Below, piece after piece: positions 9,338 through 32,200 of a DNA stretch of 64,000 bases. This DNA is from Corallium rubrum (lineage: Eukaryota; Cnidaria; Anthozoa; Scleralcyonacea; Coralliidae), in the NCBI GenBank assembly GCA_964035015.1, contig OZ035998.1, positions 38,324,059-38,388,058 of the forward strand. Reading direction: 5' to 3'. Position 1 is the stretch's first letter. Every line of letters begins with the position of its first letter. The position numbers were made by a program, and so were the translations under genes. The notes beneath the pieces were generated by a model. The model saw only the letters and a list, made by a program, of their open reading frames with translations. It made no database searches and was not told where the DNA came from.

Positions 9338-9899
9338 CGTGAAGCTGTATACTGTTTAGATTATTAAGACAACAAGAATCCTACCGTTTATAACTTTAAA
9401 ATGATTTGACCACTGAGTGACCACAACCACTGCAATTCAGATCGAGTTTTGTTTACCATACGGCGTTTGGTTTCTTCAAGTTCTCTGGTTTTGCTTCAAG
9501 ATATATTAAACCGACTGTTTGTATCCTTTTCTTCGTTGTTCTCTTTTATTATTTAAGTAAAACAGGCTCTATTTCGTTAAACGAAAGCAAAAAACTGACA
9601 GATTTTATAATATTACCAGGGTTAAGTCACGTTGGCCTGAAAAACAGAGAAAAATCTTCTCGACATTTCGAGCGAAGGCCCTTCCTCAGGAGAAATTATA
9701 GGGGCCTTCGCTCGAAACGTCGAGAAGATTTTTCTCTGTTTTTCAGGCCAACGTGACTTAACCCTGGTAATATTTGGATTTCAACCGTGGCCGACGCTGT
9801 CCTAGAAGCTTTTAAGATTTTATAATAATTTTCTTCGTCGCTAGTCACCAGTGTCCAACTATTCTTACCGCATGACACCGTACTAAACATATATATATA
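9338..9899. repeat. Duplicated flank, copy 1
   Basis: From ACGAAAACGTGAAGC through GTCACCAGTGTCCAACTATTC and a TA-rich end, this matches 10700-11035 in the same order. Copy 1 is interrupted by the foldback at 9609-9774, which is absent from copy 2. Confidence 0.6.
9609..9774. mobile_element. Palindromic insertion with hammerhead-like core
   Basis: The arms are near-perfect reverse complements, starting AATATTACCAGGGTTAAGTC. Near the centre each arm holds the motif GAAGGGCCTTCGCTCGAAA, preceded on the minus strand by CTGAGGA. CTGANGA, a short stem, then GAAA is the layout of the hammerhead ribozymes carried by Penelope-like retroelements. It appears to have inserted into duplicated-flank copy 1. 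Confidence 0.5.
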
Positions 9900-9900
9900 T

Positions 9901-10084
9901 ATACAAACAAACAAACAAACAAACAAACAAACAAACAAACAAACAAACAAACAAACAAACAAACAAACAAACAAACAAACAAACAAACAAACAAACAAAC
10001 AAACAAACAAACAAACAAACAAACAAACAAACAAACAAACAAACAAACAAACAAACAAGCAAACAAACAAACAAACAAATAAAT
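9901..10084. repeat. (CAAA)n microsatellite
   Basis: About 45 tandem CAAA units with two interruptions near the right end. The long Phe-Val-Cys-Leu open frames on the minus strand are artefacts of the tetranucleotide repeat. Bases 10085-10700 show no supported gene. Confidence 0.95.
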
Positions 10085-10699
10085 AAACTAGAAATACATG
10101 AATGCAACAACCCCTCGCCCACTTTTATCAAATGCTTTTTTGAAACCAACCCACCCACCCACCTACCCTGATTAAAATAAGCACATCTGATATACAGCCA
10201 ATAAAAAAACAAACAGATATAAAAACAAATGATAATCCTCAAGATAATTCTATAATTTATGAATAAGATGACTAAACTGATTTAACATTTCAAAGCAAAA
10301 CCTAGATTTCATTATTAAATTCTGGTTGTATACAAAATATTTTTTAGGAGGTTTCAAAAGGGATTATGCTTTCCTTTTGAAACCTAAAAAATGGCTTCCC
10401 TATGCATACATGTTTTGCAAAGGCAGAATTAAATGTCAACAGCTCAAAAATTACATTTATAATAGAGTCCGGGATAAAAACAATTCGGTAGAATCGGATT
10501 GTAGAAAGAAGTATTAAACAGACAACGTTTCAGTCGAAAATTTGGAAATACAGCCAAAAAAATTGCCAAAGCCCACGAGTATTTAATAAAAGGTGATTGC
10601 AATGCAATAAAAACATCACGTCTACATAAGCTTATAAAGGTAGTGTTTTAAGTTAGCTTTAGTTAAGCTGATTTATGGTTTGGACGAGCAAAGGGAAAG

Positions 10700-11119: not shown

Positions 11120-11400
11120 CCCAGATTTCGTCTCCCTCGCTTTTTCTACACGCGTGTAAAATGGACTCCACGCGTGTCGAGATTAGCAATGCGCGAGGAC
11201 ATAAACTTGGAGTTCTAGTTGGAGTTCTGGTCGGCAAGTATGAAATCCCTTACTATTTTCGTTGGTCTAGTTGCTATTTTTGTCGGCATAATCGTGTACA
11301 AAGTTTATTTACCGCTTAATCCAAAGTTCATGGAAGACACAGTATCACCAGCATTATTCAAGCTTATCGATCTCTTGGGTTCCGTTTGTGGAAAGCTCGG

Positions 11401-11403
11401 AAT
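11401..11403. other. Left target-site duplication (AAT)
   Basis: AAT directly precedes the GGG transposon terminus. The same AAT follows the right terminus at 23458-23460, and the paralog has AAT only once at this place. Confidence 0.9.
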
Positions 11404-11445
11404 GGGCTATTACATTTAATATGCGCACCCCCCCTGTCGAGGACC
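11404..11445 (+). repeat. Left terminal inverted repeat (42 bp)
   Basis: The sequence is identical over 42 positions to the reverse complement of 23416-23457, including the run of seven C. Similarity stops abruptly after GAGGACC. Confidence 0.95.
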
Positions 11446-11464
11446 ATTGTATGTCACTATTTTT

Positions 11465-11700
11465 ACCCCTTTGGAATTTTTGAAAATTGCTGCTCCCCCT
11501 TTGGAAATTCTGTCTAACACCCCCTTTGGAAAAGTGTTTATCCCCCTCTGGAAATCCACTCTTTTGACTTTTACCCACCTTGGAAAAACAGGTCTTCGAC
11601 CATCTCTCGTACATGCAATTTAAGGGGGAGTGTGTGAGCAGGTGAGAAGCTAGTTGTTGACCAACCCCTTTGGAAATGCAAAACACCCCCTTTGGAAATG
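11465..11700 (+). repeat. Left subterminal repeats
   Basis: About seven copies of a CCCC(T/C)(T/C)TGGAAA(T/A)-like motif occur between 11465 and 11700, all reading the same way on the + strand. Such motifs are common binding sites for transposases in large DNA transposons; that role is inferred here. Confidence 0.75.
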
Positions 11701-12696
11701 TGAAAATTAGTGTCCTAATATACAGTTAAAAAGGCCCTAAATCATGCATGGTTGAAATCCACGTGTACCGAGCCCGTACTGAGTGCATGGCTAAACTGTT
11801 GTGGATGTCCTGCCACTGGCCGTACTTGTTATGTGTAATGTTGTGCATGTTGTAAATGGTCATATTTGTATTAGTTGTAAATGTGGCGGAACTTAATAAA
11901 TAAATATGAATACTTTTGTGGGAAAGACAGACTAGATAGTCCACTTTGACCAGTTTCTAATTACAATAAATAAATTAATGTTAAAAATGATGGGATTTCA
12001 CTTTTCCATCATTAAATATACCATATGCTGGTTGTCATATTTGGGTCTTATCAAATATATCTTTTATTTCGGCAAAAAGAGCCGACGGCAACTATGTTGT
12101 CATGGCAACAGTGGTATAAATAGAAGTATGTTAAAAAATATTAAATGTTTGGAATAATTATTGGTCATTCTTCGTTGTCAAAAACTAGGCTTTCCTTTTG
12201 GTATTTCAGAACGAAATACCGGTCTGACGCAAGAATAATATCATACAAAAGTTAACCAGTTGGCTAGATTCCAGAAACTTTACTTTAGTGTTTATTATAA
12301 TTATTTAGACTGGTTAGATCACAAGAAAAAAACATCTTCATTTTTCTTCTTTTTTTCGTCATAATCACATTAATTAATAAGATGTATCATATGTATCAAT
12401 GTTATGAATTTCTAAGAGGGCTTTTTGAGGTCGGGACGCTTAGAAGTTGCACTAACCGTGACTGTCTGTAAATGCCCGTTATGCCATTGTAGTTTTTCCT
12501 TGTAGACAGAAACTCAAAGTATTAAAAATTAATTATAAGCGACCTGCACTATGAGGTCACATGATCCCAATCCTCTAAAAATAGTACAATTGCCATGCAA
12601 AATGAAAATTACAGATTCAGTCATTCGAATGAAATGTTCAAACAAAAATGTCAACTGGTTCAATTAATATACAAGTAACAAAATAGCTTCATTCTT

Positions 12697-13737
12697 CTAG
12701 TTTCTAAGACTTTTCCGCATTGAATCTTGAGCTTTTTTCATCTGCGAATAGAGATAGGATTTTCTATTCTGAAGACATTTTATTGAGTCGTGGCCGTAGG
12801 TTTTTTCACTTTTCTTTCTAGAAATTTCTTCTTCGACAGTAAAAATTTCTGTTTCAAGATTCTTTATTCTTGCCATATTTTTTCCCAACGTTTTTTTCTT
12901 CAATGACTTAGATGGCCCCGCATCTTCTCCTGAACTTACAATGGTTTCAAACTCATTTTCAAGAATAGCAACTTTTTCTTTACGCCAATTTTGGTTAATC
13001 TTCATAGCAATTTCCTCCCGAGATAACTTAGAACACGAAAGCTTTTTTGCTTCTTTATTCCAAAATTCTCGCCGGGCTTTTTCATATCCGTGGGCACTTT
13101 CTACTTCACTAAGGTCATAGATTTTAATTCCCTTCGCTTCCCATGGTTTGGGCGAGCGCAAAAAAGAATTGATTGTTGGCTTTACGTGTTTTGGAGTTTG
13201 ATACTGCTCTTGTTCCTGGAGACGTTCGTGTGGACCTTCTTCACTTTCACATTGATCACGCTCAGGATTTTCAAGTTCAGGGTCAGTACTAAAAGAGCTC
13301 GTGGATGGACCTTCCTCGTCACTGTCTATTTCTGTTACGTCTTGTTCAAAACGGCCCGCTTTCACTGCCACTGGCTCACAAGCATTTGAAATATTTCCAG
13401 CTTCAGGCTGATAGTTTCTCTTTCTTGGACTTTGTTCCTCACACACTGCAACTGGTTCATTCGGTATAAAGGTGTTCTTTTCAAAACCGATAATCTGCAC
13501 TCTAAATATTTTTCTGCAATCGCCCGTATTGCTTTCTTGCGTCGCCACTGCTTCAAGAGATAATGTGTTTTCCTGAGGGGTAGATACTCGAACACCGCCA
13601 AAAATAAATTGATAATTTGATAAATTAAATCCATCCCGTGTCAACTGCGTACGTAATTCCCACAGCTTCTTACTTTCAATAAAGTGAGGGAGAATGAACG
13701 CAAAGTTTTTTCCTTCAAATACTTTGATTACAGACAT
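12697..13737 (-). CDS. Transposon protein P1, 346 aa, DNA-binding/coiled-coil-like
   Basis: The first ATG of the open frame is at 13737; six codons upstream are open but begin with GTG. Residues 1-70 (MSVIKVFEGKNFAFILP...) contain FELRTQL-like and QFIFGGVRVSTPQE segments that match protein P2 in order. An acidic, Ser-rich linker follows (DSDEEGPSTSS). Next is a conserved-looking block with EFWNKEAKKL and INQNWRKEK, which may be a small helical DNA-binding domain. The C-terminal 80 residues are Lys/Glu-rich and helical, probably coiled coil. A TTATATA box lies about 35 bp upstream of the ATG. No known family was recognised. It is probably an accessory protein of the 12-kb transposon. Confidence 0.8.
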   Translation of the reverse strand: MSVIKVFEGKNFAFILPHFIESKKLWELRTQLTRDGFNLSNYQFIFGGVRVSTPQENTLSLEAVATQESNTGDCRKIFRVQIIGFEKNTFIPNEPVAVCEEQSPRKRNYQPEAGNISNACEPVAVKAGRFEQDVTEIDSDEEGPSTSSFSTDPELENPERDQCESEEGPHERLQEQEQYQTPKHVKPTINSFLRSPKPWEAKGIKIYDLSEVESAHGYEKARREFWNKEAKKLSCSKLSREEIAMKINQNWRKEKVAILENEFETIVSSGEDAGPSKSLKKKTLGKNMARIKNLETEIFTVEEEISRKKSEKTYGHDSIKCLQNRKSYLYSQMKKAQDSMRKSLRN

Positions 13738-13768
13738 CGTGTTGGGGCAACTCACAACATTACTACGG

Positions 13769-13829
13769 TATATAAGCTGATGTAAACACGCCTTACGTAA
13801 GACTATAATTAGAAGGTCGCGTTACCGCT
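13769..13829 (-). promoter_or_regulatory. Upstream region of P1: TATA box and shared 11-mer
   Basis: On the minus strand, AGCGGTAACGC (13819-13829) lies 82 bp upstream of the P1 ATG and is followed by TTATATA (about 13769-13777). The same 11-mer lies 80 bp upstream of the P2 ATG in the same orientation. This suggests a common promoter element. Confidence 0.5.
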
Positions 13830-14105
13830 TATAATGCCATGCATATACCGCTATTTTTAGCGATTGCATAGAAGAAATGCATATAAAGACTCATTAAACA
13901 TGGTTTCTTTTTTCCTTCATAAATTACTAATGAGTAATTCTTAAACGACATTGTACCACTAGTCTACATAAATACAAAGTTGAAAGTTTTGTTGTAATCG
14001 TTAGTTTGATCGGCTTCGTCCACCGGCATCCGGCTCTCCGCGTTTTTAGTTTACTTATCGAGATATATAGTCAGATAAGTTATTTTTGTTATAGCCATGG
14101 CATCA

Positions 14106-14172
<67 letters not shown>

Positions 14173-14175
<3 letters not shown>

Positions 14176-14280
14176 GATAAAGGTTGTTCTCCGAGTTTGG
14201 TAGAGTCGGACTAGTAAACCGAAGGTTGCGGTTTCGAATCCGGCATGGCTTCGTTCACTCGGAGAACAACCTTTATCATT
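14173..14280 (+). repeat. tRNA-Thr(AGT)-like foldback insertion
   Basis: A perfect 24-bp inverted repeat (14173-14196 and 14257-14280) encloses a tRNA-like core. The A-box-like TTGGTAGAGTCGG and B-box-like GGTTTCGAATCC are at tRNA spacing. The anticodon-arm equivalent is TCGGA-CTAGTAA-ACCGA, giving anticodon AGT. The acceptor part is not a normal tRNA, so this is probably a tRNA-derived SINE or foldback element, not a functional tRNA gene. It sits inside a (TA)n tract. Confidence 0.6.
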
Positions 14281-14944
14281 ATTAATTACCCGAGTGTAAA
14301 TTTCCACATTGACATCGCATATATATATATATATATATATGAATGAAACATGAATATGATTTGGTTGTCCAACGATTTCTTCTATAGTCGAAGGATCCAA
14401 TATAGGATTCAATAGTCTGTCATTCGTAAATAAATTTAGTTCGCATTTTTATACTGTACTAAAGAGGATTTAATAACATTCAGAAGCACAAACAGTTTTA
14501 ATTTCTGGTTGGCCTTATTCACTGTGGGGGGGGACAGAAAAAAAATCCATGCAAGCAAATTAAGAAGAAAAAAATATATGTACGACACGAATGTTACATA
14601 AGAAAATATATGCAAATTAAGAAAAGAATTACATGCACAGCTGACCACCGAAAGAAAAATTGCGTGCATGACTAAAAAGTCCCCCCCCCCCATCACTTTT
14701 CTAATGGTCCGTCCCTAAGCAAACTGTGTAGGTTTCAAGCTGTCACGACATTGCTTTCGCCCCGCCCCGCGGAATTCTCCGACATAGAAGAGGCAACGAT
14801 TATAATAAACAAGCCCTGCATGTGAAGATACCAAATAAAGAACAAACGTTCTCAGTTTCTACTGTATTTTATTATACTATCGTGAAAACTAAACATTAGC
14901 CAGAGGCGATCTGAATCAGGTAATGCATGAATGTAGTTTTAAGA

Positions 14945-15175
14945 TTAGGGTATTCCATCTACTTCAGTTAATGAGATACAGTGTTTAAGAAGGTAATTAC
15001 TCTCCTGTAATTGAGCTATGGGACAACCAAAAAGAGTGAATGTAAAATCTTCGCGAACCAATCCGCTCAGCTGTTCAAGGATTTGAGTCCGTACTTCAGC
15101 CAGGTTTCTTTCTAGGTCGTAATCGACCAAAAATGCAAGCGTGCATTTGCTTTCGTCGTCTCGGATGAGAATCAT
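14945..15175 (-). CDS. Transposon protein P2, 76 aa, P1-like N-terminal domain
   Basis: The frame starts at the ATG at 15175; seven upstream open codons lack an ATG. The protein begins MILIRDDESKCTLAFLVDYD and has AEVRTQI and DFTFTLFGCPIAQLQES. P1 has the same layout: MSVIKV..., LWELRTQL and NYQFIFGGVRVSTPQE. It stops after one domain, so it may be a truncated paralog or a deliberate single-domain form. The AGCGGTAACGC 11-mer lies 80 bp upstream, matching P1. It is divergent from the OTU-like gene across about 185 bp. Confidence 0.65.
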   Translation of the reverse strand: MILIRDDESKCTLAFLVDYDLERNLAEVRTQILEQLSGLVREDFTFTLFGCPIAQLQESNYLLKHCISLTEVDGIP

Positions 15176-15254
15176 ATCAAGGTTAAGGACCAACAAGTAA
15201 GCAGAACAGTCAGGCAGGTATCTCTAAATACTGACATGACGTTGGCGAGGCTGG

Positions 15255-15286
15255 GCGTTACCGCTAAACAAACAAACTTATAAATA
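15255..15286. promoter_or_regulatory. Divergent promoter between P2 and the OTU-like gene
   Basis: TATAAATA at 15279-15286 lies 75 bp upstream of the OTU-like ATG. The 11-mer shared with P1 lies at 15255-15265 (minus orientation, serving P2). Confidence 0.5.
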
Positions 15287-15360
15287 CCGTTTATCTATTT
15301 AGGGACAGAATAATATTAACCCACTTTGTCGTCGTTCTCATCATTTCACAGCAAGTAAAG

Positions 15361-16231
15361 ATGTCTTTCAAAAAATTTAGGGAAGGAGATACGATTGCGG
15401 ATTTAAATTACTTGGCGAGTATCTTAGAGAGTGGAAACGTGCCGAGTGTTACCAGAACGGTATGTACGGAGATGAAAAAGAAATACTCTTTACCAAAAGC
15501 ATTGAAGGAAAATAAACCCAACTTTACACGTTTGCCAAACGATCAAGTCGCTCAAAGTTTACTGCCAGACGATGTTCCATATGCTTTAACCGCAAAACAG
15601 TCGAGGGGAGACGGAAGTTGTTTTTTTACTTCCATTTCATTAAGTCTGGTAGGGAGTGGTTATCTTAGTTCAATTCTGCGTATTCGAATAGCAATTGAAC
15701 TTTTTGAAAATGCGGAGTGGTACAGCGATGCGCAGCGAATTGATGACGTCATTGGCGAAGGGTCGATTTCAATGAACAAAGCATCCCTATTTGTCATGAT
15801 TACATCGTGCGAAAATATGAATCTGGGAACAGACAGAAGAAGCATCATTAAAAACGTTGCCGTAAAAACGTGTAACACATGTCAGTGGGCTTCACTTATC
15901 CATGTCATGGCTGCCGCTTCTGTTTTACAAAGACCAGTTTTCAGCGTCTACCCTAATAAATGCGGAACAGCGGGAATACGCTCTCTTGTATCACGCCGAA
16001 ATTAGACCGAGGACCGACCATGAAAGCATTTTCAACTACCAAAATCCGATTTTTGTCATGTGGACGAGATTATCCGTATCTACACAAAGCAAGTGGTTTC
16101 AACCGAATCATTTTGTTCCATTGTTTCCACAAACAGAGTTTCAGAAAGTTCACTATGATGCAGAGTTTCCTCCACTTTCGCAAACACTTGGCAAAGATCA
16201 GCACAAGAGGTATACAGTCGTTGGCATCTAA
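15361..16231 (+). pseudogene. OTU-like cysteine protease (vertnin-type), frameshifted
   Basis: The frame from ATG 15361 encodes DDVPYALTAKQSRGDGSCFF. GDGSC supplies the Asp84/Cys87 typical of OTU deubiquitinating-type proteases. After FSVYP near 15957 the reading frame shifts by one. The continuing frame reads NAEQREYALLYHAEIRPR and then WFQPNHFVPLFP, which supplies the catalytic His region (16109-16111). Vertnin-like proteins have the same order of motifs. The shift could be a real one-base indel or an assembly error; a 25-bp intron is too short to be likely. The last residues and stop come from a foldback element inserted at 16213. OTU and other cysteine proteases are known cargo of eukaryotic DNA transposons. 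Confidence 0.8.
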
Positions 16232-16460
16232 GCGTGTACGCCGCCCGTCAAAACATGTTTTATGTCATAGTCAAAGTTAAATGTTTACCTTGAAACATAT
16301 TAGGTTTTCATTCGAAAACCAATACATTGTCACATGAATGTGCCCTTAGCCAATCACGTCTCGCCAATCCCACGGTGTTGATTTCAAAACGGTCAACTTT
16401 GGCTTAAATTTAGAACATGTTTTGACGGGCGGTGTACACGCTTAGGTGCCAACGACTGTA
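16213..16460. repeat. Foldback element at the 3' end of the OTU-like gene
   Basis: The arms TACAGTCGTTGGCATCTAAG and the inverted CTTAGGTGCCAACGACTGTA continue through a shared CGCCCGTCAAAACATGTTTT. The arms are about 50 bp. It supplies the stop codon of the OTU-like frame. Bases 16461-17560 contain no recognised gene. Confidence 0.75.
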
Positions 16461-17561
16461 GTTTCCGTGATTTATGATTTCGTTTTTAGTTTCTTATTTC
16501 TTATTTCTTATTTCTTTACTTTAGAGAGAGGAGGATTTGAGTATTTCCCGTCAGTCCTTTCGCGGCTTTTCCAAATATCTTTACAAATTGTTTTTCCATA
16601 AAGCTAGGCGGTAAACAAGATTTCTGAATAGGGTTAGGATTTTTGTTCTGGTTAAGGTATGGAGAAGATTGCTTAAGTCTTGAGAGTCACTGAAACTTGA
16701 TGACAAGTTTGGAAAAAGACAAATTTGACGATATATTTTGGAAAAGCCGCAAAAGGACTGGACGGGTCCTTTTGAGTCATCCCTTTCAACTTCGACCATG
16801 GAAAACGGTCTTTGTTGTACTAATGTACATGTACTTTACAACACGAAACAAACGAAACGTTTTTGAAATGGTACTCCGCAAACGAGTATAATCGTAATTA
16901 ACCTTTTTGCCCAGCTTGGTCGAGTCAAGAAACCGTCATAAATAATAAAAATTAAAAATTACTATACACTATAGTCTATAGCGAGTTTCCGATTTATTCT
17001 TTTAGAAAAGATTTTTATTCTCAAAATATTTTGTGTTGGATCTAAACAGATTATTAAATCAACCACATCGCTTAATGTGTATACTGTGGCAGGTTTTGAA
17101 TTGGCATGCATGGCTATAAATAATTGCCTTCAGCGATTGGAGGCAAGTTATCCAATTTAAGTTATCTAAACCGTGTAGGTTTCATAGCTCAACATGTATA
17201 GCGGCGCACCAGAATCCCAAAGGCGAAGTTCAAATATACTAATAAAGTAAACAAATTTTTCGCGACAAAATTTGTTTTTATCAGGCTTTTTTCGACATTA
17301 ACAATCACAAGTACTGTTTATTCATGTACAGTTCATATTCAGTAAAACAATGAGATTTCGTGTATTGCCAGAACTGATAAATTACACAATTAGCACCATA
17401 AGCAAGCCAGCCCCAGCTATGGGAGCTAGCCCTTCTCATGTAAACACGAATGAAAATCATCTCGCCAAAGCGCGCTGGTTCACTTCTAACACCCCCTATT
17501 ATCGACGGATTCTTCATGCCCATTAAAAAGCAATGTTGTTGACAAATATGAGACACATGAG

Positions 17562-17941
17562 CAGTGGCGTAGCCAAGGGCGGGCCAGGCCGGGCAGCCCG
17601 GCCAATCCGCGTCAATGACATCATTATTCTACTAATCTCCAACGCTAGTCCGTGGCCAGGCCACACGTTTGTGATTTGTGTACTCGTGACTAAAGAATCT
17701 ATGCACAATAAATACATAATCAAACTGACTAAAATGTTTGCCGCAATCCTCCAAAAAAATAATGTAAATATTTAATTTTCGTATTTTATAATATTCAGAA
17801 TTCTACAAATTATTTCCCTAAAATGCAGGAAATGGCATTTCAAAACCCCTAAATTTGAAAAATTTTCCGCGATGTGCTACCCCCTTCTTTAGAAATGTCA
17901 CTTCGTGCCCGTCCAATTGGTCAACCCTGGCTACGCCACTG
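17562..17941. mobile_element. Non-autonomous hAT-type element
   Basis: The ends CAGTGGCGTAGCCA and TGGCTACGCCACTG are terminal inverted repeats. CACATGAG flanks both sides (17554-17561 and 17942-17949), a perfect 8-bp target duplication. An 8-bp duplication with CAGTGG-type ends is characteristic of hAT elements. It is nested inside the 12-kb transposon. Related sequence (CAGGAAATGxCATTTC) recurs near 25145, 25540, 31770 and 56585. Confidence 0.88.
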
Positions 17942-18096
17942 CACATGAGGGCAAACAATCAGTTTAGATCCAAAAAATGCAAGCTATTTTAAGAATAATA
18001 ATTTATAAGAAGAATCGTTTTGAAGTGAACGAGTTAGAAACTAGCTATATAGTAATTTTTTAACACTATTTCTTGACTTAGACCAAGCTATAGGCT

Positions 18097-18240
18097 ACAG
18101 TGCCGGATTTAGGACAGGGCAGACTGGGCAGTCGCCCAGGGCCCCCACAAAATAATGTTTAAGGGGGGCCTCCACAAAAATGTCTTGAAAGTTGAAAAAA
18201 TAGGTCTTGAAATGAAAAAAATCTTGAGAGAAATTCGATT
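18097..18240 (+). repeat. Fragment of an AGTGCCGGATTTAG-ended element
   Basis: CAGTGCCGGATTTAGGACAG followed by a CCCAGGGCCCCCAC stretch resembles the end of another hAT-like family. No second end was found. Confidence 0.3.
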
Positions 18241-18493
18241 CGATTTGACAGCTTCTATTGCTTTATTACACTTTAAAACACGAAACGAGTAGCAGTGAAT
18301 GTTTTTGATATGGGATCAAAAACTTGCAACAATAAGTCTGCAAAGTCAATCCTGCAAAAAAAATTTTTGTTCAAGCTCCGCTCATGTTTGGCTTATTTTT
18401 ATACTCGACTTTTCTTCAACAAAAATTGATTTCATTATACATGTATAATGTATTAATATCTCGCAACGCATTGCGACACAAATCGACGATATA

Positions 18494-18539
<46 letters not shown>

Positions 18540-18567
18540 ATATATATACACGTTTATAAGATATAAT

Positions 18568-21500
18568 ATGAGTAACTATTTCCATTTCAGGCCGACTAAG
18601 GCAAACCAATCGCCTAAAAAGAAATTCAAACGAATCATTCAAGAAAAGGATCGCATGGATGCACCTCGAAACACGAAATCGATCAATACCCCAAAACAGG
18701 AACCGTTTCAACCATCTGTATCGTCATTGCCGTTTCCCACCTTATCAAATAATTGGTACAAGCGTCAAGCGCTAAAAGCTGACAAAGACATTAAAAACGT
18801 AGATCCCAAGCCCCAGGTGAAAGCAACTACTTTCGATGAAAAAGTCAGTTCGTCTGCTCTTCCATTCCCAAATATGTCGGGAAAATGGTACGCAAAACAG
18901 CCAAATCGCCAAAATAATGACAAAAAAGACAAAGAAAAGAAATCAAGTTTGCCGTTTCAACAACTTTCAAGAAATTGGTATAAAAAAAGGGGAAAGCTTT
19001 TTGCTAAAAATCGATCGAGGAAAGAAGAAAAAAAGCCAAGAGATGAAGGGAAGTCCTTAGAGGAAAGTGTTCTTAATCTCGAGACAAAGCTAAAAGATAA
19101 AAAAATGTCGGATAGGACACGAAACGAATATGTAGCAATTCTGGAAACCGGAAAATACTTAATTAATAATGGACCCTTGGTAGCTGCTCAAGAAATAAGT
19201 AAAGTTTATCGGGCAAGTAAGCAAAGTTCATTAAGTTCTGCGAAAAGACGGCTTCGCTCTTCTGAACTTCTCCGAAAGCTGAAGAAATATTTCAACGTCG
19301 TTGAGATTGACATTTGTGGAACAGCGTACATTGTGGAGAATAAGTATCCAAACATTAATGAACTGGCAACAACACTGGAATCCAACTTAAAATCGACTGC
19401 AAGGAAGAATATGAATGACCATATTAAAAACAAAATTGGTTCGCACTTTAAATCAGCTCTTACATTTTCAGACACAAAGAAGGACAGAGACATAATCAAG
19501 GCTCTTTTCACAAAAGCAACTAGCGTGCGATTTGTCGCAAATCTAATGGATGTAAAAAACAAAAGTGCCATTATGTCTTGTCGAGATGAATTTGAAGAAA
19601 AACTGTCCCAGTTCGAAGAACTTTGCAAAACTTCCGAAGTCGTACGTAACGACATGACTTGCGAGCAGCAACGACGACTAATCAAGAGAATCATAAATAA
19701 AAGAAAGCAGAATTTGATGCAACTTCCTTACGACAACAGAGGAAGAAAATTAAAAGCGGAAGTATTTCCTCAATTGGGAGCTTCCCTAGAAAAGATTTTC
19801 CAAGAAGGGGGGAAAGAAGAGATCGGAGGCTTGGAATGCCATCCTAGGCTTACAACAGATGTCCGATATCGAAGTAAGGATAATAACTTCTTCATGAGAC
19901 AAGCTCGAGAAACTCTATTGAGCGTGGCTCCACCAAACTTTTCAATCGCATTATCAACGTGTTACAACTATACCGAGTCGTACAAAGACGGCACATATGC
20001 GGCGAAGCGTCATCACAGTGGAGCAGAAATCAACGCCAAAATTTCCCTGAAGCCACCTCCAAGAATTGGAACTCAAAAAGAAGTGATAAACTTGCACTGG
20101 AGTACAAAAAATGTAAACCTACTTTTGGAAGATGCTGAAGGCGGAAGCAGCGACCAAGTGATAGACTCACGAGACGCCAAGAGCATGATTTGTGGAGATA
20201 TCCCACCTGTGCAACTACCTGGGAAAAGCTGGAAACCCATCATATATCCTGACCACACTTTTGAACAAGGTCGTAACAACGCTGTTTACCCCAAAACCCA
20301 TTTACTCATGGATGCCACAAAGTTTCAGTCATCTCCAGGGCAGGATAGTGACGGTTCCGCGGACAAAGTTGAAGATAGGATCGTCACAAGAACTGGGAAG
20401 ACGGTTATGCTTGTGAACATTGCTTTCTTTGAACCAGAAACAACTTTCCGTGGTATGAATGAAATATTTCACATGCTAGCTCTGCCAGAACTGGACAGCA
20501 TTTTCCGTAATCCAACCAGTGAAAGACTGAAAAGCGTTTTTAGTTTCATTGTTGATAATGGTCATTCAGAAGATCCTGATAGCCCTCTTACACAAATGTG
20601 CATGGTTCGAATCTTGCGAATGCTCTCCCTTTATAAAATATCCCAAAGGTCGTTTGCTGAATACCACAGCAAAAGAAACTTTGCGGAAAGACCGCACGCG
20701 GCTGCAAACGAAGTACTATCCAGGCATGGTTCGTTCGACAGTAGTCGTATCCACAAAAACGCAGTTGCAGGCAGCAGTGAACACCGAGAGAACATGGAAG
20801 CAATGGCTGAAAATGTAAAGCAATGTTTGCGCCAAGCAAAATTCGGCGGTCATTTTATTAAAGCATTGAGGGGAGTAACGGAGAAAGAACAAATGTTCAA
20901 CGATGAGGATAAACTTAAGCAGTTTTTAGCGTTAAGCGAAGAGCGTAAAAGCGAATGCACATGGACTTACAAGCCTGTACAAAATTTTTGTTTAGAAACA
21001 CTTATCTGTGCTTGGGGAATACCGAATAGCTTTGAAGGGTCGTATGCACAAGACTATGACATTATTACAAATGCGACTGGGCCACGGACATGGAAAGACA
21101 AATACAGTACTACAATTTTTAGCAAAGAGAAAGTAGCCAAGGATGGGGTACTAAATGTCGAACAACCAGTGCCAGATTACGTTCGCTGGTTTCGGTCAAG
21201 TGGAGAACTCCATTACCTGTCATTCGAAAAAACAGTTGCCATCATATCACAGTCCAAAGAAATCGTCCTCCGTCCTGGAGAGTTTCTTCCAACAAGACTG
21301 TTAGAACTGTTATTTCAACTAAGCAGTGATCCTCCTGAAAGTGTTCTGGCCAATTTAGCATTTTTGTGTTGGGTTCCAGTCAACGACGTTAAGATGCATT
21401 TCAAAGAGCAAAGGGAGAAAATGGAAAAAGAATATGAAAACGACCTTGAAAGAGAACGCTGGAAACAACATCATCTTTATGGGAAACGAGTGAAAGATCT

Positions 21501-22335
21501 GCAAGATATGTGTATCGAGAACGATATTCACTACAGAGGTCTACAAAAACACGAACTTGTTAGTCAGTTATCGGCAAAAACAGACAAAGATCCTCCGTCA
21601 GATTACAAGCCCATCTACAATGGAAACATACAATCAATATCAGAAGACATTATCACCATTAAAAAGTTTCCTGTCACCCTTCTCAAGTTCATCCTCAAAT
21701 CCCATGGCATTACTTTTAAGGGATCCAAAGATCAATTAGTACTGCGCGTTTTTCTTTTGCGTCATCGCCGACATCATTTTGCCTTTAAATCCCAAATCGA
21801 TGAAGTACAAACCACAATTGAACACGTAACGCAAATCATGTATGCAGAAATTGAGCACGACATTGTTAACACAAACATCATAGATATAAGACGACAACGA
21901 AAGTACGGCACGGCTGAACTGACGAAGGACAAATCAAAGCTTGCAATTCCAAGTCAAATACAAGATCTACCGGACATACCAACCACCGCATTTTGTGATT
22001 TGATGGAGTACGTGAACACCCTTGGTAACACTGACAGAACTGACGTTCCTCACCCAGGAATAGATGAAAAACTACAACCAACGACTGATACAGACTCGAT
22101 TTTCTCGTTCTTTGAAATTGGACAACGGATAAAAGTTAGATGGACCGCAGACGACATTGGTGATACTGGATGGAGAGCAGGCTGGTACATTGCTGAAGTT
22201 CAAGGATCAGATGTAGAATCAGACAAAATAAATGTAGTATATACATCAGAACCAAATTGTGTGTGCGATGTTGAAGTAACACCTAGTTTTATTGAAGGAA
22301 AATTACGATTGTGGAAAAAAAGTGCGAAAAAATAA
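18568..22335 (+). CDS. DDE transposase-like protein with SAP and Tudor/SH3-like parts
   Basis: An open frame of 1255 codons from ATG 18568. Residues 50-141 contain three copies of a motif like LPFPTLSNNWYKR (52-66, 96-110, 127-141). The core has LLMDATKFQ (Asp582), FIVDNGHSEDP (Asp663) and NFAERPHAAANEVLSRHG (Glu707). D-x80-D-x43-E is a normal RNase-H/DDE transposase spacing. Residues 971-1003 (KDLQDMCIENDIHYRGLQKH) form a SAP-type DNA-binding motif, and 1034-1067 a second, weaker one. Residues 1182-1250 (GQRIKVRWT, GWYIAEVQG) look like an SH3/Tudor-type barrel. It probably cuts and joins the 12-kb element. A splice-acceptor-like TTCCATTTCAG lies just after the ATG, so an upstream exon is possible. 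The superfamily was not identified. Confidence 0.88.
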   Translation: MSNYFHFRPTKANQSPKKKFKRIIQEKDRMDAPRNTKSINTPKQEPFQPSVSSLPFPTLSNNWYKRQALKADKDIKNVDPKPQVKATTFDEKVSSSALPFPNMSGKWYAKQPNRQNNDKKDKEKKSSLPFQQLSRNWYKKRGKLFAKNRSRKEEKKPRDEGKSLEESVLNLETKLKDKKMSDRTRNEYVAILETGKYLINNGPLVAAQEISKVYRASKQSSLSSAKRRLRSSELLRKLKKYFNVVEIDICGTAYIVENKYPNINELATTLESNLKSTARKNMNDHIKNKIGSHFKSALTFSDTKKDRDIIKALFTKATSVRFVANLMDVKNKSAIMSCRDEFEEKLSQFEELCKTSEVVRNDMTCEQQRRLIKRIINKRKQNLMQLPYDNRGRKLKAEVFPQLGASLEKIFQEGGKEEIGGLECHPRLTTDVRYRSKDNNFFMRQARETLLSVAPPNFSIALSTCYNYTESYKDGTYAAKRHHSGAEINAKISLKPPPRIGTQKEVINLHWSTKNVNLLLEDAEGGSSDQVIDSRDAKSMICGDIPPVQLPGKSWKPIIYPDHTFEQGRNNAVYPKTHLLMDATKFQSSPGQDSDGSADKVEDRIVTRTGKTVMLVNIAFFEPETTFRGMNEIFHMLALPELDSIFRNPTSERLKSVFSFIVDNGHSEDPDSPLTQMCMVRILRMLSLYKISQRSFAEYHSKRNFAERPHAAANEVLSRHGSFDSSRIHKNAVAGSSEHRENMEAMAENVKQCLRQAKFGGHFIKALRGVTEKEQMFNDEDKLKQFLALSEERKSECTWTYKPVQNFCLETLICAWGIPNSFEGSYAQDYDIITNATGPRTWKDKYSTTIFSKEKVAKDGVLNVEQPVPDYVRWFRSSGELHYLSFEKTVAIISQSKEIVLRPGEFLPTRLLELLFQLSSDPPESVLANLAFLCWVPVNDVKMHFKEQREKMEKEYENDLERERWKQHHLYGKRVKDLQDMCIENDIHYRGLQKHELVSQLSAKTDKDPPSDYKPIYNGNIQSISEDIITIKKFPVTLLKFILKSHGITFKGSKDQLVLRVFLLRHRRHHFAFKSQIDEVQTTIEHVTQIMYAEIEHDIVNTNIIDIRRQRKYGTAELTKDKSKLAIPSQIQDLPDIPTTAFCDLMEYVNTLGNTDRTDVPHPGIDEKLQPTTDTDSIFSFFEIGQRIKVRWTADDIGDTGWRAGWYIAEVQGSDVESDKINVVYTSEPNCVCDVEVTPSFIEGKLRLWKKSAKK

Positions 22336-22605
22336 GATTTATAGTAAACAACCTTCAGAACAATAGTTTAATGTAATAATTATAATTTACATAATGCAAC
22401 AACATTGCAGACTTAATCCAATCTGTATTGAACTGGCATGTAGTTTTAGCTTCAACTGTTTGCTGTATAGATCTTAAACCTTGCACAGCATGTCGTTACT
22501 CAATACATGTATCAGGCTTCTAAATTTAAATAACTAGTTGGTTTATATTCGCTTTAACTGTACTTGACTAATCATATATTATATAATATATACTGTATGT
22601 ATATG

Positions 22606-22663
<58 letters not shown>

Positions 22664-23029
22664 GCCAAGGAAATACATGTAGTAATGTGTGTTTATATGG
22701 TGTATATATGGGGTGCTTACATTTAACCAACAACAACTGAACTTCTATTTTTAATAACAATCTTTGTAACAAAAGCAACACAACAGAACTATTAAGTTTA
22801 ACATTTTAGTTTTTTTCAGGTAAATTAAAGGCATGGATGTTCATTGTTGTTTACGTATAAATATATTTGTTCTTGTGTTCTCTTTGCTCTATATCACGTT
22901 AACTTTTATCACGTTGTATTAGTTGGCCTGGAAACGTGAGGGGTATTGTATATTCAAAAATTTGAAAGATGGCGTTTTAGATTTTGAACACTTAGAAAAA
23001 ATAGAAAAGGCAAACCTGTATTTGTGCTT

Positions 23030-23415
23030 TTACCCTCTTGGAAAAGCGGGGAAACCATGCAACACCCCCTTTGTGGAGAAAAAGGGTAAAACACAAAAAT
23101 CCCCCCTCCACTTCCTATAAAATAATTATACGCCTTTTTAATTTCAAATGTGTTTTCAATAGAAACACTGGAACATCCCCTCTGGAAATACCTTTTCTAC
23201 CTTTTCACCCTTCTGGAAATACCTTAGCACCCCTCTGGAAATATGGAAATATGTTATAAATCCCTCTAGGAAAAGCAAGGAAAAGACTGGCAACACTGGC
23301 TGTCACCCCTCTGGAAATCTGTTTCTACCTTACAGCCCCCTAAATAACTTTGGAATAGGTAATGATGGAGGCCCGTCTGGAAAATGGTCAGTGTAGAACC
23401 CCTCTGGAAAACGGA
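23030..23415 (+). repeat. Right subterminal repeats
   Basis: At least eight CCCCTCTGGAAAT-like motifs lie between about 23030 and 23415. All are in the same + orientation as the left set, although the terminal repeats are inverted. Confidence 0.7.
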
Positions 23416-23457
23416 GGTCCTCGACAGGGGGGGTGCGCATATTAAATGTAATAGCCC
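23416..23457 (-). repeat. Right terminal inverted repeat (42 bp)
   Basis: Exact reverse complement of 11404-11445. It ends ...TAATAGCCC and is followed by the AAT duplication and the resumed esterase frame. Confidence 0.95.
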
Positions 23458-24919
23458 AATTGCACCAAGATACTGGATTACGCGTGTTATCATTAGATCG
23501 ATGGACGGGTCAGAGAAGGGGCATTTTGATGGCGAAGGAGATGTTGAAGATACGACGATTTCTGGAGTTCCTGTGAGAATATATCGGTCAAAGACTGGTC
23601 TTACTCAAAACAATGCCCGACCTTGTTTGATCTATTTTCATGGCGGTGGTTTCATATTTTTTAGCGCGAGATCACAGATTTTTGACAAGATGTTGTCGAA
23701 ATTTTCGGCAGCCACTGGGTCCGTGGTTATCTCGGTTGATTACGGACTGGCCCCCGAACATATGTACCCAGCCCAATTTCAAGAGTGCTATTCCGTTGTT
23801 TCAACCGTGATTGCGGAGTTTACGAAATTTGGAATTATTAAAAACAAGATTGTTATTGGTGGGGATTACGCCGGGGGACTTCTGTCTGCTGCGATTTCGC
23901 TCGAGTTTGCCAAAGAAAAGAGAGAAAAGGATATTGCTGCACAGATATTAATAAGCCCCTGGCTGCAAATGATTGATATGACATGTCTTCCTTCCTATCA
24001 AGAGAACTTTGTACATGGGTTAGCAAGAGAGCAATCGGCGTATTACATATCAATTGTTACCACGGGTAAACCCGATATGCAACAAGAATATCAGTCTGGA
24101 AATGTTTCAAGATACTTCAGGCAGACACCATATTGGAAGCTTTTAGAAATCCCTGAAAGTTCCAACTGCGCTCAAATTCCCTCTGAGAAGAATATTCCCG
24201 AATTTCCTCCTCAATTTGTCCAAACTACAGTAGACCAGCGTCATTCACCACTTTTGGCAGATACTGTGGAAGGAGTACCTTCAACTTTTGTGGCCGTTAT
24301 TCAGTACGATATTCTTGCAAGCGAAGGCAACCTCTTTGCTCGTCGCCTTGAGAAAGCTGGCATCTCTGTAGTTCACAAGATTTACAAAGCATATCATGGC
24401 TTTTTTTATACAACCACAACCACCCCCATGGTCACTGAAGCCATGCAGGATATTATTAATTATCTTAACTCTGTGTTTTATGAAGATTAGATTTCATTCT
24501 GTCAAAACTGCAGTGCATATACTGCACCAAAGAACGAAATATAACTGGACTAGTGTAGATAACACCATGAAACCATGGTACTGAAAACCCCAATGTCCCT
24601 CATAATTGACAATAAAATTCAGAAATTGCTTTTTAAAATTGCATTTTATGATAATTAATACAACAGACATTTGGTAGGCATTCATCAAGCTCAAGTACCC
24701 ATGTCGGGAACTTCGCCATCGCTTATCAGCAATTACACATTCACAGTATATTTTGGTTGATTTATATATAATTTACTCACAATCACGTTACACCATGTTC
24801 ACTGTATCTCTCTCTTTTCTCGGATTGCATGCATGTCTATTATCCAATTAAATCTTGACATTCTATTAATATAATTCTAAACTAATCTTAATTAACCCAA
24901 TATAACAACAACATAATGC

Positions 24920-29200: not shown

Positions 29201-32200
29201 ATGAATCTTTTTTGAATTAGTGCTGCACTCAGTTGCCAAGGGAAGGCACTGCACGAATTTATTTTTAAAATTTTTCAGTTTTGTGTACAAAATTTCCCCC
29301 CACTCAAATTCATGAATTTTTTTGGTCGCCCCCCCCCCCCCCTCCCATAACTTTACTAATGGTCTCCCTTATATATTATTGTTAGGGGTTGACAACTAAC
29401 CCCTCAACAGAAAACGAACTTAACTTATATGTGAAACCGACTTAACTCTATACTTAAATTCAATCACGGCCGTAATTTCGTCAGTTCGTGTCAAATGTCG
29501 GATCTATAGCCATCGACCTAAAGATCCGGTGTCGGAACTATAACCACGGCGTTTCATTTAATACCTTGACCTCTTCACTTGCCCATGTTCCCTGCGAGTG
29601 CGAGCAGACGTTCGAAACGAGTGAAAGCACCGAATTGACAGAAATATAGGTGCCATTTGATTTAAGCATGAAGTGCCTTACTATTTTCGTTGGTCTAGTT
29701 GCTATTCTTGTCGGCATAATCGTGTACAAAGTTTATTTACCGCTTTCTCCCAAGTTATCAGAAGACTCATTAGTATCACCAGTATTATTCAACCTTGGCG
29801 AACTCTTTGCTTACGTTGGCGGAAAGCTCGGAATTGCACCAAGATACTGGATTATGCGTCTTATCGTTAGATCGATGGACGGGTCGGAGAAGGGGCATTT
29901 TGATGGCGAAGGAGACGTTGAAGATACGACGATTTCTGGAGTTCCTGTGAGAATATATCGGCCAAGGACTGGTCTAACTCAAAACAATGTCCGACCTTGT
30001 TTGATCTATTTTCATGGCGGTGGTTTGACACTGTTTAGCGCGAGATCAAAGATTTTTGACAAGATGTTGTCCAAATTTTCGGCAGCCACTGGGTCCGTGG
30101 TTATCTCGGTTGATTACAGACTGGCCCCCGAACATATGTTCCCAGCACAATTTCAAGATTGCTATTCCGTTGTTTTAACCGTGATTGCGGAGTCTGCGAA
30201 ATTTGGAATTTTTAAAAACAAGATTGTTATTGGTGGGGATAGCGCCGGGGGACTTCTGTCTGCTGCGATTTCGCTCGAGTTTGCCAAAGAAAAGAGAGAG
30301 AAGGATATTGCTGCACAGATACTAATAAACCCCTGGCTGCAAATTATTGATTTGACATGTCTTCCTTCCTATCAAGAGAATGCACAGGGATTCATGATAT
30401 CAAGAGAGCAAACAGCTTATTATTCAGCAATTGCTACCACGGGTAAACCCGATATGCAACAAGAATATCTGTCTGGAAATGTTTCAAGATACTTCAGGCA
30501 GACACCATATTGGAAGATTTTAGAAATCCCTGAAAGTTCCAACTGCGCTCAAATTCCCTCTGAGAAGAATTTTCCTGAATTTCCTCCTCAATTTGTCCAA
30601 ACTACAGTAGACCAGCGTCTTTCACCACTTTTGGCAGATACTGTGGAAGGAGTACCTCCGACTTTTGTGGCAATTTCTCAATACGATCTTCTTGCAAGCG
30701 AAGGCAGCCTCTTTGCTCGTCGCCTCGAGAAAGCTGGCATCTCTGTAGTTCACAAGATTTACAAAACATATCATGGTTTTATATCTAACCTTCTCTATTC
30801 TTATACAACCACCCCCATGGTCACTGAAGCCATGCAGGATATTATTAATTATCTTAACTCGGTGTTTTATGAAGGTTAGACTTCATTCTGTCAATAAAGG
30901 GGATATTAAAGGCTGTGAAAAAAATTATCAAGACTGCAGTATGATATTTTAGAACAACTGAACACCAAAACTGCGGTGCATATGCTGCATGTTAAGCTGG
31001 ATTTCCATTCAGTGCATTTTGTCGCGCGATCGACTTTTCTCGATCGCTTTCTTTTGAAATGTGTGTATTCAACCAAAGCTAATGAAATGCGTTCCGCTTG
31101 ACAACCCACAATTCAAAAGAAAGCGATCGCAAAAAGTCGATCGCGCGATAAAATGCACTGAATGGAAATCCACCTTAACAACGTATATTTGACATTCAAA
31201 TTTTATAATGAAATTCGAAAATTGTTTTTTAAAATTGCATTCTAATGATAATTAACGCGTCAATCAATTTGTACTGTTAACATCCCTCGGGCATACCCCC
31301 GGGCATTTGAACTTTTCGATATTTTGTGGTCAAATTTCCCACCCCCAGGCCAAAAAAAGCAGTCCAAATGCCCCCACACGTAAGGCAAATTGATGGTCAA
31401 ATGCCCCAACCCCCAGGGTCATTCTGACTGTAATTCTTTTGGAATTGTGTGTGAAAAATAAACGCACTGAATTTTGAAGTAATTTCAACATTTTAATATA
31501 ATAAAGTGTGTATTAAAATACTATACTTGATGCTATATTAAAGAAAATGTTAAAGTTGCAGTGTCATATTTATAGATAAACTTTAAATATTAAATTAATA
31601 TAAACAACAGTTCTGAGTTCTCCATGGTACTTTGTTGGCCTAATAAACGATGAATGTAAATTGTTTCATGCTGCAATTCTCAACATTTTAAATCACCTTG
31701 TAAAGAAAACACCAATATATATGAAACATTTGATTCAAAATAAAAACAGCTAAATTTTGAAATCGAGAGTCGCTGAAATGCCATTTCCTGGCTTTTGGAG
31801 GAAGATTTTGCAGACTCTAAAGGTTAAAAAACGTCATATCAAATACTCAAAACATGCAAACGTCACATAGATACTCAAAATGAATACACTCATTAGATTG
31901 AATACTCTGTATAGAGCGTTTTCATCTTACGTCACGGCGGCCATATTGGTGTACCAAAACAATGAAATGGCGGCCATATTGGTGTACGGCATGGGAATTA
32001 GCTCTTTCTTATTCAAATATTTCGTATTGTTTCACCACCCCAATGGGCCACCGATCACGTGAGTGAAAACGCTCTATACAGTTTATTTCCTGACACAATA
32101 GATCGTTTTCACTCACGTGATCGGTTGCCCCATTGGGGTGGTGAAACAATACGAAATATTTGAATAAGAAAGAGCTAATTCCCATACCGTACACCAATAT

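What the first reader, a model, noticed from the sequence alone, without database searches (positions are those of the whole stretch)
11404..23457. Complete 12-kb transposon with an unusual gene set
Exact 42-bp inverted ends, a 3-bp AAT duplication and an empty-site paralog define it to the base. It combines a DDE/SAP/Tudor-like 1255-aa protein, an OTU-like protease and two related accessory proteins. I could not match GGG termini, a 3-bp duplication and this cargo to a named superfamily. It may be a new or poorly described group.
Basis: partly seen in the sequence, partly recalled or inferred. Interest (0 to 1): 0.9.

Follow-up and report, generated by a model that had tools for sequence, protein, structure and literature searches.

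The report
Jumping gene carrying ubiquitin-cutting enzyme gene
This is a large jumping gene in a eukaryotic genome, one of a family of related elements that insert at A/T-rich 3-letter sites and carry their own helper genes, including enzymes that remove ubiquitin or SUMO tags; it could not be matched to any named group with the tools available.

Summary
The ends are confirmed to the base: 42-bp perfect inverted repeats, an AAT duplication, and a host-gene paralogue that crosses the site uninterrupted. It is a real, recently mobile transposon. Three copies elsewhere in the same 474-Mb genome measure 14.1 kb; two of them are 99.3% and 99.7% identical to the third. The window copy is NOT gene-complete: accessory B is cut off by a ~2.1-kb deletion and the OTU gene is frame-broken, while the 1255-aa protein is open. 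Copy C13 has all four genes open.

The group is broad: at least 29 transposase loci, including a family with different ends and OTU fused to the transposase. All 17 elements whose two ends I read have 3-bp duplications, 16 of them AAT/ATT. SAP and OTU domains are supported; Tudor is not. OTU lies near 18 of 29 transposase loci, an Ulp1-type protease near 4 of the other 11, and never both.

The transposase matches no Pfam transposase family. Kinship with ISAzo13/Zator fits the 3-bp duplication and D-to-E spacing but was not significant. Pangu shares the target but no detectable transposase. Repbase/Dfam could not be searched.

The parts
11401..11403 (.). left target-site duplication AAT
11404..11445 (+). 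left terminal inverted repeat, 42 bp, begins GGGCTATTAC
   Evidence: identical in copies C22, C13 and C1:89.79M
11466..11706 (+). left subterminal array of CCYYYTGGAA-type repeats, all in one orientation (6 within the left 600 bp)
   Evidence: none in the element's interior, 1 in the 51.9 kb of window outside it; family C82a has none of this motif
12697..13737 (-). accessory protein A, 346 aa from its ATG (352 aa from an upstream GTG), open
   Evidence: no Pfam family
14945..15175 (-). remnant of accessory protein B (N-terminal part only)
   Evidence: 92 stop-to-stop codons here against 348 in copies C13, C22 and C1:89.79M
14948..14954 (.). junction of a ~2.1-kb internal deletion relative to the 14.1-kb copies
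15361..16231 (+). OTU-like cysteine protease gene, frame-broken in this copy (15361-16005, then on to 16231 in another frame)
   Evidence: Pfam PF02338 E 3.7e-5; one open frame in C13 and C22, split in C1:89.79M
18568..22335 (+). putative transposase, 1255 aa, open
   Evidence: 99% identical to the C13 copy
18721..18987 (+). three copies of a short N-terminal motif of the type S[SA]LPF..[LM]S..WY.[KR] in the transposase
20164..20688 (+). proposed DDE core: D533, D663, E707 (129 residues between the first two, 43 between the last two)
   Evidence: D533 11/11, D663 12/12, E707 12/13 of the rows that cover the position; spacing; assignment by motif, not by structure
21475..21771 (+). region of two SAP domains in the transposase, placed by eye from relatives
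   Evidence: Pfam SAP E 1.7e-9 in relative L028, 2 stretches; coordinates
23023..23414 (+). right subterminal array of CCYYYTGGAA-type repeats, same orientation (6 within the right 600 bp)
23416..23457 (-). right terminal inverted repeat, 42 bp
23458..23460 (.). right target-site duplication AAT

Best explanation
An autonomous-type cut-and-paste DNA transposon, in a copy in which two of its four genes are broken. The 1255-aa protein is the transposase: it binds the terminal repeats and the subterminal CCYYYTGGAA array, cuts the DNA with a DDE (RNase H-like) site made of D533, D663 and E707, and joins the ends 3 bp apart at AAT/ATT targets. Its tandem SAP domains bind A/T-rich DNA. The OTU protease (Ulp1-type in a sister family) removes ubiquitin or SUMO from the transposase or from chromatin/repair proteins. 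The paired accessory proteins, read from the other strand, act with the complex; what they do is not known. SHOWN: the ends, the 3-bp duplications, sister copies, recurrent co-location of the gene types, SAP and OTU homology, recent mobility. INFERRED: catalysis by these three residues, the DNA-binding roles, the protease targets.
For: Exact ends and empty site. 17 of 17 elements with both ends read carry 3-bp duplications, 16 AAT/ATT and 1 ATA, over families with different terminal sequences. Near-identical copies: C13 and C1:89.79M are 99.3% and 99.7% identical to C22 over 14 kb; in the two comparisons made among the five copies of the C46 family the transposase is 100% and 99.8% identical, though whole 5.9-kb loci of the five align at 96.7-97.7%. 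Four short derivatives of 981-1606 bp with matching ends and 3-bp duplications. 18 of 21 accessory-A matches lie within 25 kb of one of 29 transposase loci; chance is about 0.003 per match, but copies are not independent. 18 of 29 loci have OTU within 25 kb (25 of 138 OTU rows), 4 others an Ulp1-type protease, none both. OTU is fused to the transposase in the C46 family and lies directly before it, one stop codon apart, in C123. Two transposase lineages at 73% aa identity show pN 0.17 against pS 0.80.
Against: No Pfam, PHROGs or PDB sequence match supports a DDE fold. E707 is conserved in 12 of 13 rows; the exception is a fragment that begins there. Between the window and C13 transposases there are 2 silent and 7 amino-acid-changing codon differences, so there is no sign of selection since those two copies separated. 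The subterminal motif is absent from family C82a and present in reversed orientation in C46, so its role is not general as written. 7 of 29 transposase loci have neither protease nearby. No activity has been shown.
Confidence: 0.82

Rival explanations
1. It is a divergent branch of the Zator superfamily (related to bacterial ISAzo13/TP36, Pfam PF07592) that acquired SAP domains, proteases and accessory genes.
For: 3-bp duplications as in Zator and ISAzo13 (PMC10045372, passages). 43 residues between the last two catalytic acids against 42 in an ISAzo13 sequence. Similar motif order by eye: D[ST][KR]..., an H[DT]F-like motif, SK.N..E. With one of two gap settings the free profile alignment placed D663 and E707 on the ISAzo13 D and E, with D533 two columns off.
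Confidence: 0.4
2. It is a new superfamily-level lineage of eukaryotic DDE transposons.
For: No Pfam transposase model matches the window protein or the 4 scanned relatives that contain the same core; several divergent lineages in one genome; the listings of four paper searches showed no description of this gene set.
Against: Repbase, Dfam and other eukaryote genomes could not be searched; Pfam lacks models for several small superfamilies (recalled). Such elements may already sit in Repbase under a known name.
Confidence: 0.35
3. It is a PHIS-type element, such as Pangu, with a much enlarged transposase.
For: Pangu duplications are 5'-ANT-3' and its TIRs usually start AG or GG (PMC4482050, passages); here 16 of 17 duplications are AAT/ATT and the window family starts GG.
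Against: No IS5 or Harbinger Pfam model matches; a single IS5 control does not align by the triad. The C46 family starts GT. None of the 16 is ACT or AGT, and one further is ATA. Autonomous Pangu candidates average ~3.5 kb in that paper; these elements are 7.4-16.6 kb.
Confidence: 0.07
4. The 1255-aa protein is cargo and the element is moved by an unrelated transposase acting in trans.
For: The large protein has no detectable transposase domain, and copies with a broken large protein exist.
Against: The only other genes found in the complete copies are the accessory proteins and a protease, none of which resembles a transposase; the large protein is conserved across families with different ends.
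Confidence: 0.06

Closest known systems
Zator superfamily / bacterial ISAzo13 (TP36, PF07592)
   Same: 3-bp duplications; 42-43 residues between the last two catalytic acids; SK.N..E around the last one
   Different: no significant sequence similarity by HMM or profile-profile; longer first-to-second D spacing (129 against 92); SAP domains, proteases and accessory genes, which I do not know from ISAzo13
Pangu (PHIS superfamily)
   Same: 16 of 17 duplications fit A-N-T; TIRs begin GG in the window family
   Different: no IS5/Harbinger transposase match; only AAT/ATT among the 16, one further ATA; element several times larger
Ginger1
   Same: carries either an OTU or an Ulp1 protease domain (PMC2836005, passages), as these families do
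   Different: Ginger1 has a Gypsy-integrase type transposase with a C-terminal protease and 4-bp duplications (PMC10045372, passages); here the protease is N-terminal or a separate gene, duplications are 3 bp, and no integrase model matches
Zisupton / KDZ
   Same: large multi-gene elements (SAP/protease association recalled only)
   Different: 8-bp duplications (PMC12730594, passages) against 3 bp here; no Pfam match (that Pfam holds a KDZ model is recalled)

Membership tests
Cut-and-paste DNA transposon with TIRs | terminal inverted repeats and fixed-length target duplications | tested here: met
   42-bp TIR; 3-bp duplication in 17 of 17 elements with both ends read
Cut-and-paste DNA transposon with TIRs | RNase H-like DDE transposase | tested here: inconclusive
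   three conserved acids; no fold evidence, structure prediction switched off
Zator / ISAzo13 | 3-bp target-site duplication | tested here: met
   feature from PMC10045372
Zator / ISAzo13 | transposase homologous to PF07592 (ISAzo13) | tested here: inconclusive
   no HMM hit; hhalign and own profile tests not significant; motif order similar by eye only
Zator | transposase groups with known Zator transposases | not testable with these tools
   no Zator sequence or Repbase on hand
PHIS / Pangu | 5'-ANT-3' duplication | tested here: inconclusive
   16 of 17 fit; one is ATA in a simple-repeat site
PHIS / Pangu | IS5/Harbinger-type DDE transposase | tested here: not met
   no such Pfam match at E<=1 in the window protein or the 4 scanned relatives that contain the core
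Ginger1 | Gypsy-integrase-like transposase | tested here: not met
   no integrase (rve) Pfam match in the same 5 proteins
Ginger1 | OTU or Ulp1 protease carried by the element | tested here: met
   OTU; Ulp1-type by way of relatives
Zisupton / KDZ | 8-bp target-site duplication | tested here: not met
   3 bp in all 17 elements read
[quoted passage not shown]
   no CxxC between D663 and E707 in the 11 rows printed; feature from PMC12730594
[quoted passage not shown]
   of the 11 rows printed 4 read DNGH, starting at the second D itself, and 7 do not; feature from PMC9587614
Academ | XPG nuclease or helicase partner (recalled; the AcademH paper was not held) | tested here: not met
   no such Pfam match in the window transposase or in accessory A, accessory B and OTU of copy C13

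The most novel reading that the evidence does not exclude
[quoted passage not shown] If so, protein-tag removal is part of the transposition cycle, and swapping OTU for Ulp1 is a repeated solution shared with unrelated Ginger1 elements.
Probability: 0.33. Interest if true: 0.72.

Novelty: new variant of a known kind. Interest (0 to 1): 0.55.

Why it matters
If the lineage is unnamed, it adds a superfamily-scale group to the 20 DDE transposon superfamilies listed for Repbase (PMC9587614, passages), and one with recently mobile, near-identical copies that can be tested. Independently of the name, the either-or use of an OTU or an Ulp1-type protease in elements with related transposases repeats what was reported for Ginger1, and makes the suggestion that the ubiquitin pathway takes part in transposition (PMC2836005, passages) directly testable by leaving the protease gene out of a working pair.

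Tried and rejected
Led nowhere: viral-contig scans with the transposase and a relative, phage and plasmid tblastn, PHROGs, PDB sequence search with the transposase (0 hits). A profile of 25 rows gave three SAP-domain chains at E 0.03-0.8 and one homeodomain-type chain at 0.05. A ubiquitin-like fold for the accessory N-terminus was considered from its pattern and found no support: not claimed. Tudor: no support. Ulp1 for the 487-codon ORF of C82a/C1b: no direct Pfam or PDB match; kept because two relatives of 26-27% identity match PF02902 (E 1.3e-4, above its cut-off, and 0.047, below it) with H, D, Q and C aligned. My first guess for the C46 family's end (TGTGTAG..) was corrected to GTGTAG.. 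with an ATT duplication. A dN/dS script failed half way and was rerun as counts.

Selection to tell: of 40 end matches of the C46 family (itself a capped list) I read both ends of 9 elements (18 matches); of 25 end matches of the first group, 16 form 8 pairs, all read, and 9 are single ends. One search scored 37 of 265 candidates, so 29 loci is a lower bound. One search was given only 25 of the 138 OTU rows; one search repeated the count with all 138 OTU rows and all 24 Ulp-like rows, and its figures are the ones used. The control set was one sequence each of IS30, IS5, IS186 and IS630.

Full report
WHAT IS THERE. The element runs from 11404 to 23457 (12,054 bp). Its first and last 42 bases are perfect inverted copies and are flanked by AAT on both sides. 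The host sequence joined across it aligns, with no gap at the site, to a paralogue at 29664-30894 (91% identity). The interrupted gene encodes an alpha/beta hydrolase (PF07859, E 2e-41): the insertion falls inside its coding sequence, so this copy of the hydrolase gene is split and the paralogue is not. Inside each end lies an array of CCYYYTGGAA-type repeats, six in the left 600 bp and six in the right, all in the same orientation, none in the interior and one in the 51.9 kb of window outside (shuffled elements held at most 2). The motif is also at the ends of the C46 family, in the other orientation (2 and 2, plus 1 inside), but absent from C82a.

THE COPY IS DAMAGED. The window lies in a 474-Mb genome. 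Three other copies with the same 97 bp at the left end measure 14,158 (C22), 14,111 (C13) and 14,131 bp (C1:89.79M); C13 and C1:89.79M are 99.3% and 99.7% identical to C22. Copy C13 has four open genes: accessory A (384 stop-to-stop codons, minus strand), accessory B (348, minus), OTU (320, plus) and transposase (1293, plus). The window copy lacks about 2.1 kb, which removes most of accessory B; its OTU frame is broken; its transposase and accessory A are open. In C22 and C1:89.79M the transposase is split between frames, and in C1:89.79M the OTU gene is too. So the four copies differ in which genes are open, and one has all four.

THE GROUP. The 1255-aa protein has 44 matches in the genome (37 of 265 candidates were scored, so this is a lower bound), which merge into 29 loci. 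Two families besides the window's were read in full. C82a and C1b (16.6 and 16.3 kb, transposase 48% identical) have ends differing from the window's by one base in the first 25 and duplications ATT and AAT. The C46 family (7,390 bp, transposase 37% identical) has different ends (GTGTAGTTCCAG...), one accessory gene on the minus strand, and one 1742-codon gene in which an OTU domain precedes the transposase. Five copies were found; the transposase is 100% and 99.8% identical in the two comparisons made, while the five 5.9-kb loci align at 96.7-97.7%. Four short derivatives without long genes were read (981-1606 bp, longest frame 78-185 codons). Of the 17 elements whose two ends I read, 17 have 3-bp duplications: 16 AAT or ATT and one ATA. 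The ATA case lies in a simple repeat with 12 identical bases on both sides, so its true length is uncertain.

GENES TRAVEL TOGETHER. Accessory A has 21 matches; 18 lie within 25 kb of one of the 29 transposase loci, against about 0.003 expected per match (copies are not independent); the three others are C217, C15 and C191. Accessories A and B are homologous to each other and to the C46 accessory protein, most clearly in a central FWN..A-type stretch and a C-terminal part. Of 138 OTU matches, 25 lie near a transposase locus, at 18 of the 29 loci; OTU is otherwise common in this genome. Of the 11 loci without OTU, four (C82a, C1b, C200, C115) have the 487-codon protein of C82a or a relative of it within 25 kb; no locus has both; seven have neither, several of them fragments. 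Two distant relatives of that protein match the Ulp1 protease family (PF02902, E 1.3e-4, above its cut-off, and 0.047, below), and the His, Asp, Gln and Cys positions align; the protein itself has no direct match. So the families appear to carry either a ubiquitin-type or a SUMO-type protease, as reported for Ginger1 (PMC2836005, passages read).

THE TRANSPOSASE. No transposase model of Pfam matches the window protein or the four scanned relatives that contain the same core, at E up to 1. SAP is found in relatives, in two stretches in C82a at E 1.7e-9. Across lineages pN is 0.17-0.44 against pS of 0.80-0.86, which is saturated, so it has been under selection as a protein. Three acids fit a DDE site: D533 in DS[KR]DAK, D663 in VDNG, E707 in SKRN[FP][VA]ER, present in 11/11, 12/12 and 12/13 of the rows that cover them, with 129 and 43 residues between. 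This is assignment by motif, as structure prediction was off.

HOW IT PROBABLY WORKS. Shown: it moves as a unit with fixed ends, makes 3-bp duplications mostly at AWT, has moved recently, and its gene types recur together. Inferred: DDE cut-and-paste by the 1255-aa protein; SAP domains hold A/T-rich DNA; the protease edits ubiquitin or SUMO on the transposase or on host repair or chromatin proteins; the accessory proteins are partners of the complex.

VERDICT. A real transposon of a diverse, recently mobile lineage with a distinctive gene set; class unresolved between a divergent Zator and a new superfamily; the copy in the window is not gene-complete.

Noticed in passing
11219-11403 and 23461-24490: The insertion splits the coding sequence of an alpha/beta hydrolase gene (PF07859); a 91% identical uninterrupted paralogue lies at 29650-30879.
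   Followed up: partly
16213-16286 and 16387-16460: A 74-bp imperfect inverted repeat (84%) with 100 bp between its arms at the 3' end of the OTU gene; 47-50-bp inverted matches lie at the same place in copies C13, C22 and C1:89.79M. Origin unknown.
   Followed up: no
18721-18987: Three copies of a short motif (SSLPFPTLSNNWYKR and two like it) in the transposase N-terminus; similar motifs occur in relatives. It looks like a repeated binding motif.
   Followed up: partly
9696-10242: Long tandem repeat that reads FVCLFVCL... on the minus strand.
   Followed up: no
39671-41002: 443-aa minus-strand frame that looks like a non-LTR retrotransposon reverse transcriptase (recognised by eye).
   Followed up: no
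L144/L145 (G000:C1:73197558-73224149): A 26.6-kb element with the same ends, flanked by 12 identical bases (ATAGTATATATA) rather than only 3; a simple-repeat target or a longer duplication.
   Followed up: no
L051 (G000:C1:71700400-71702700): Search rows report an open frame of about 3000 codons around a transposase match with 2 stops inside it, with OTU upstream; not read.
   Followed up: no
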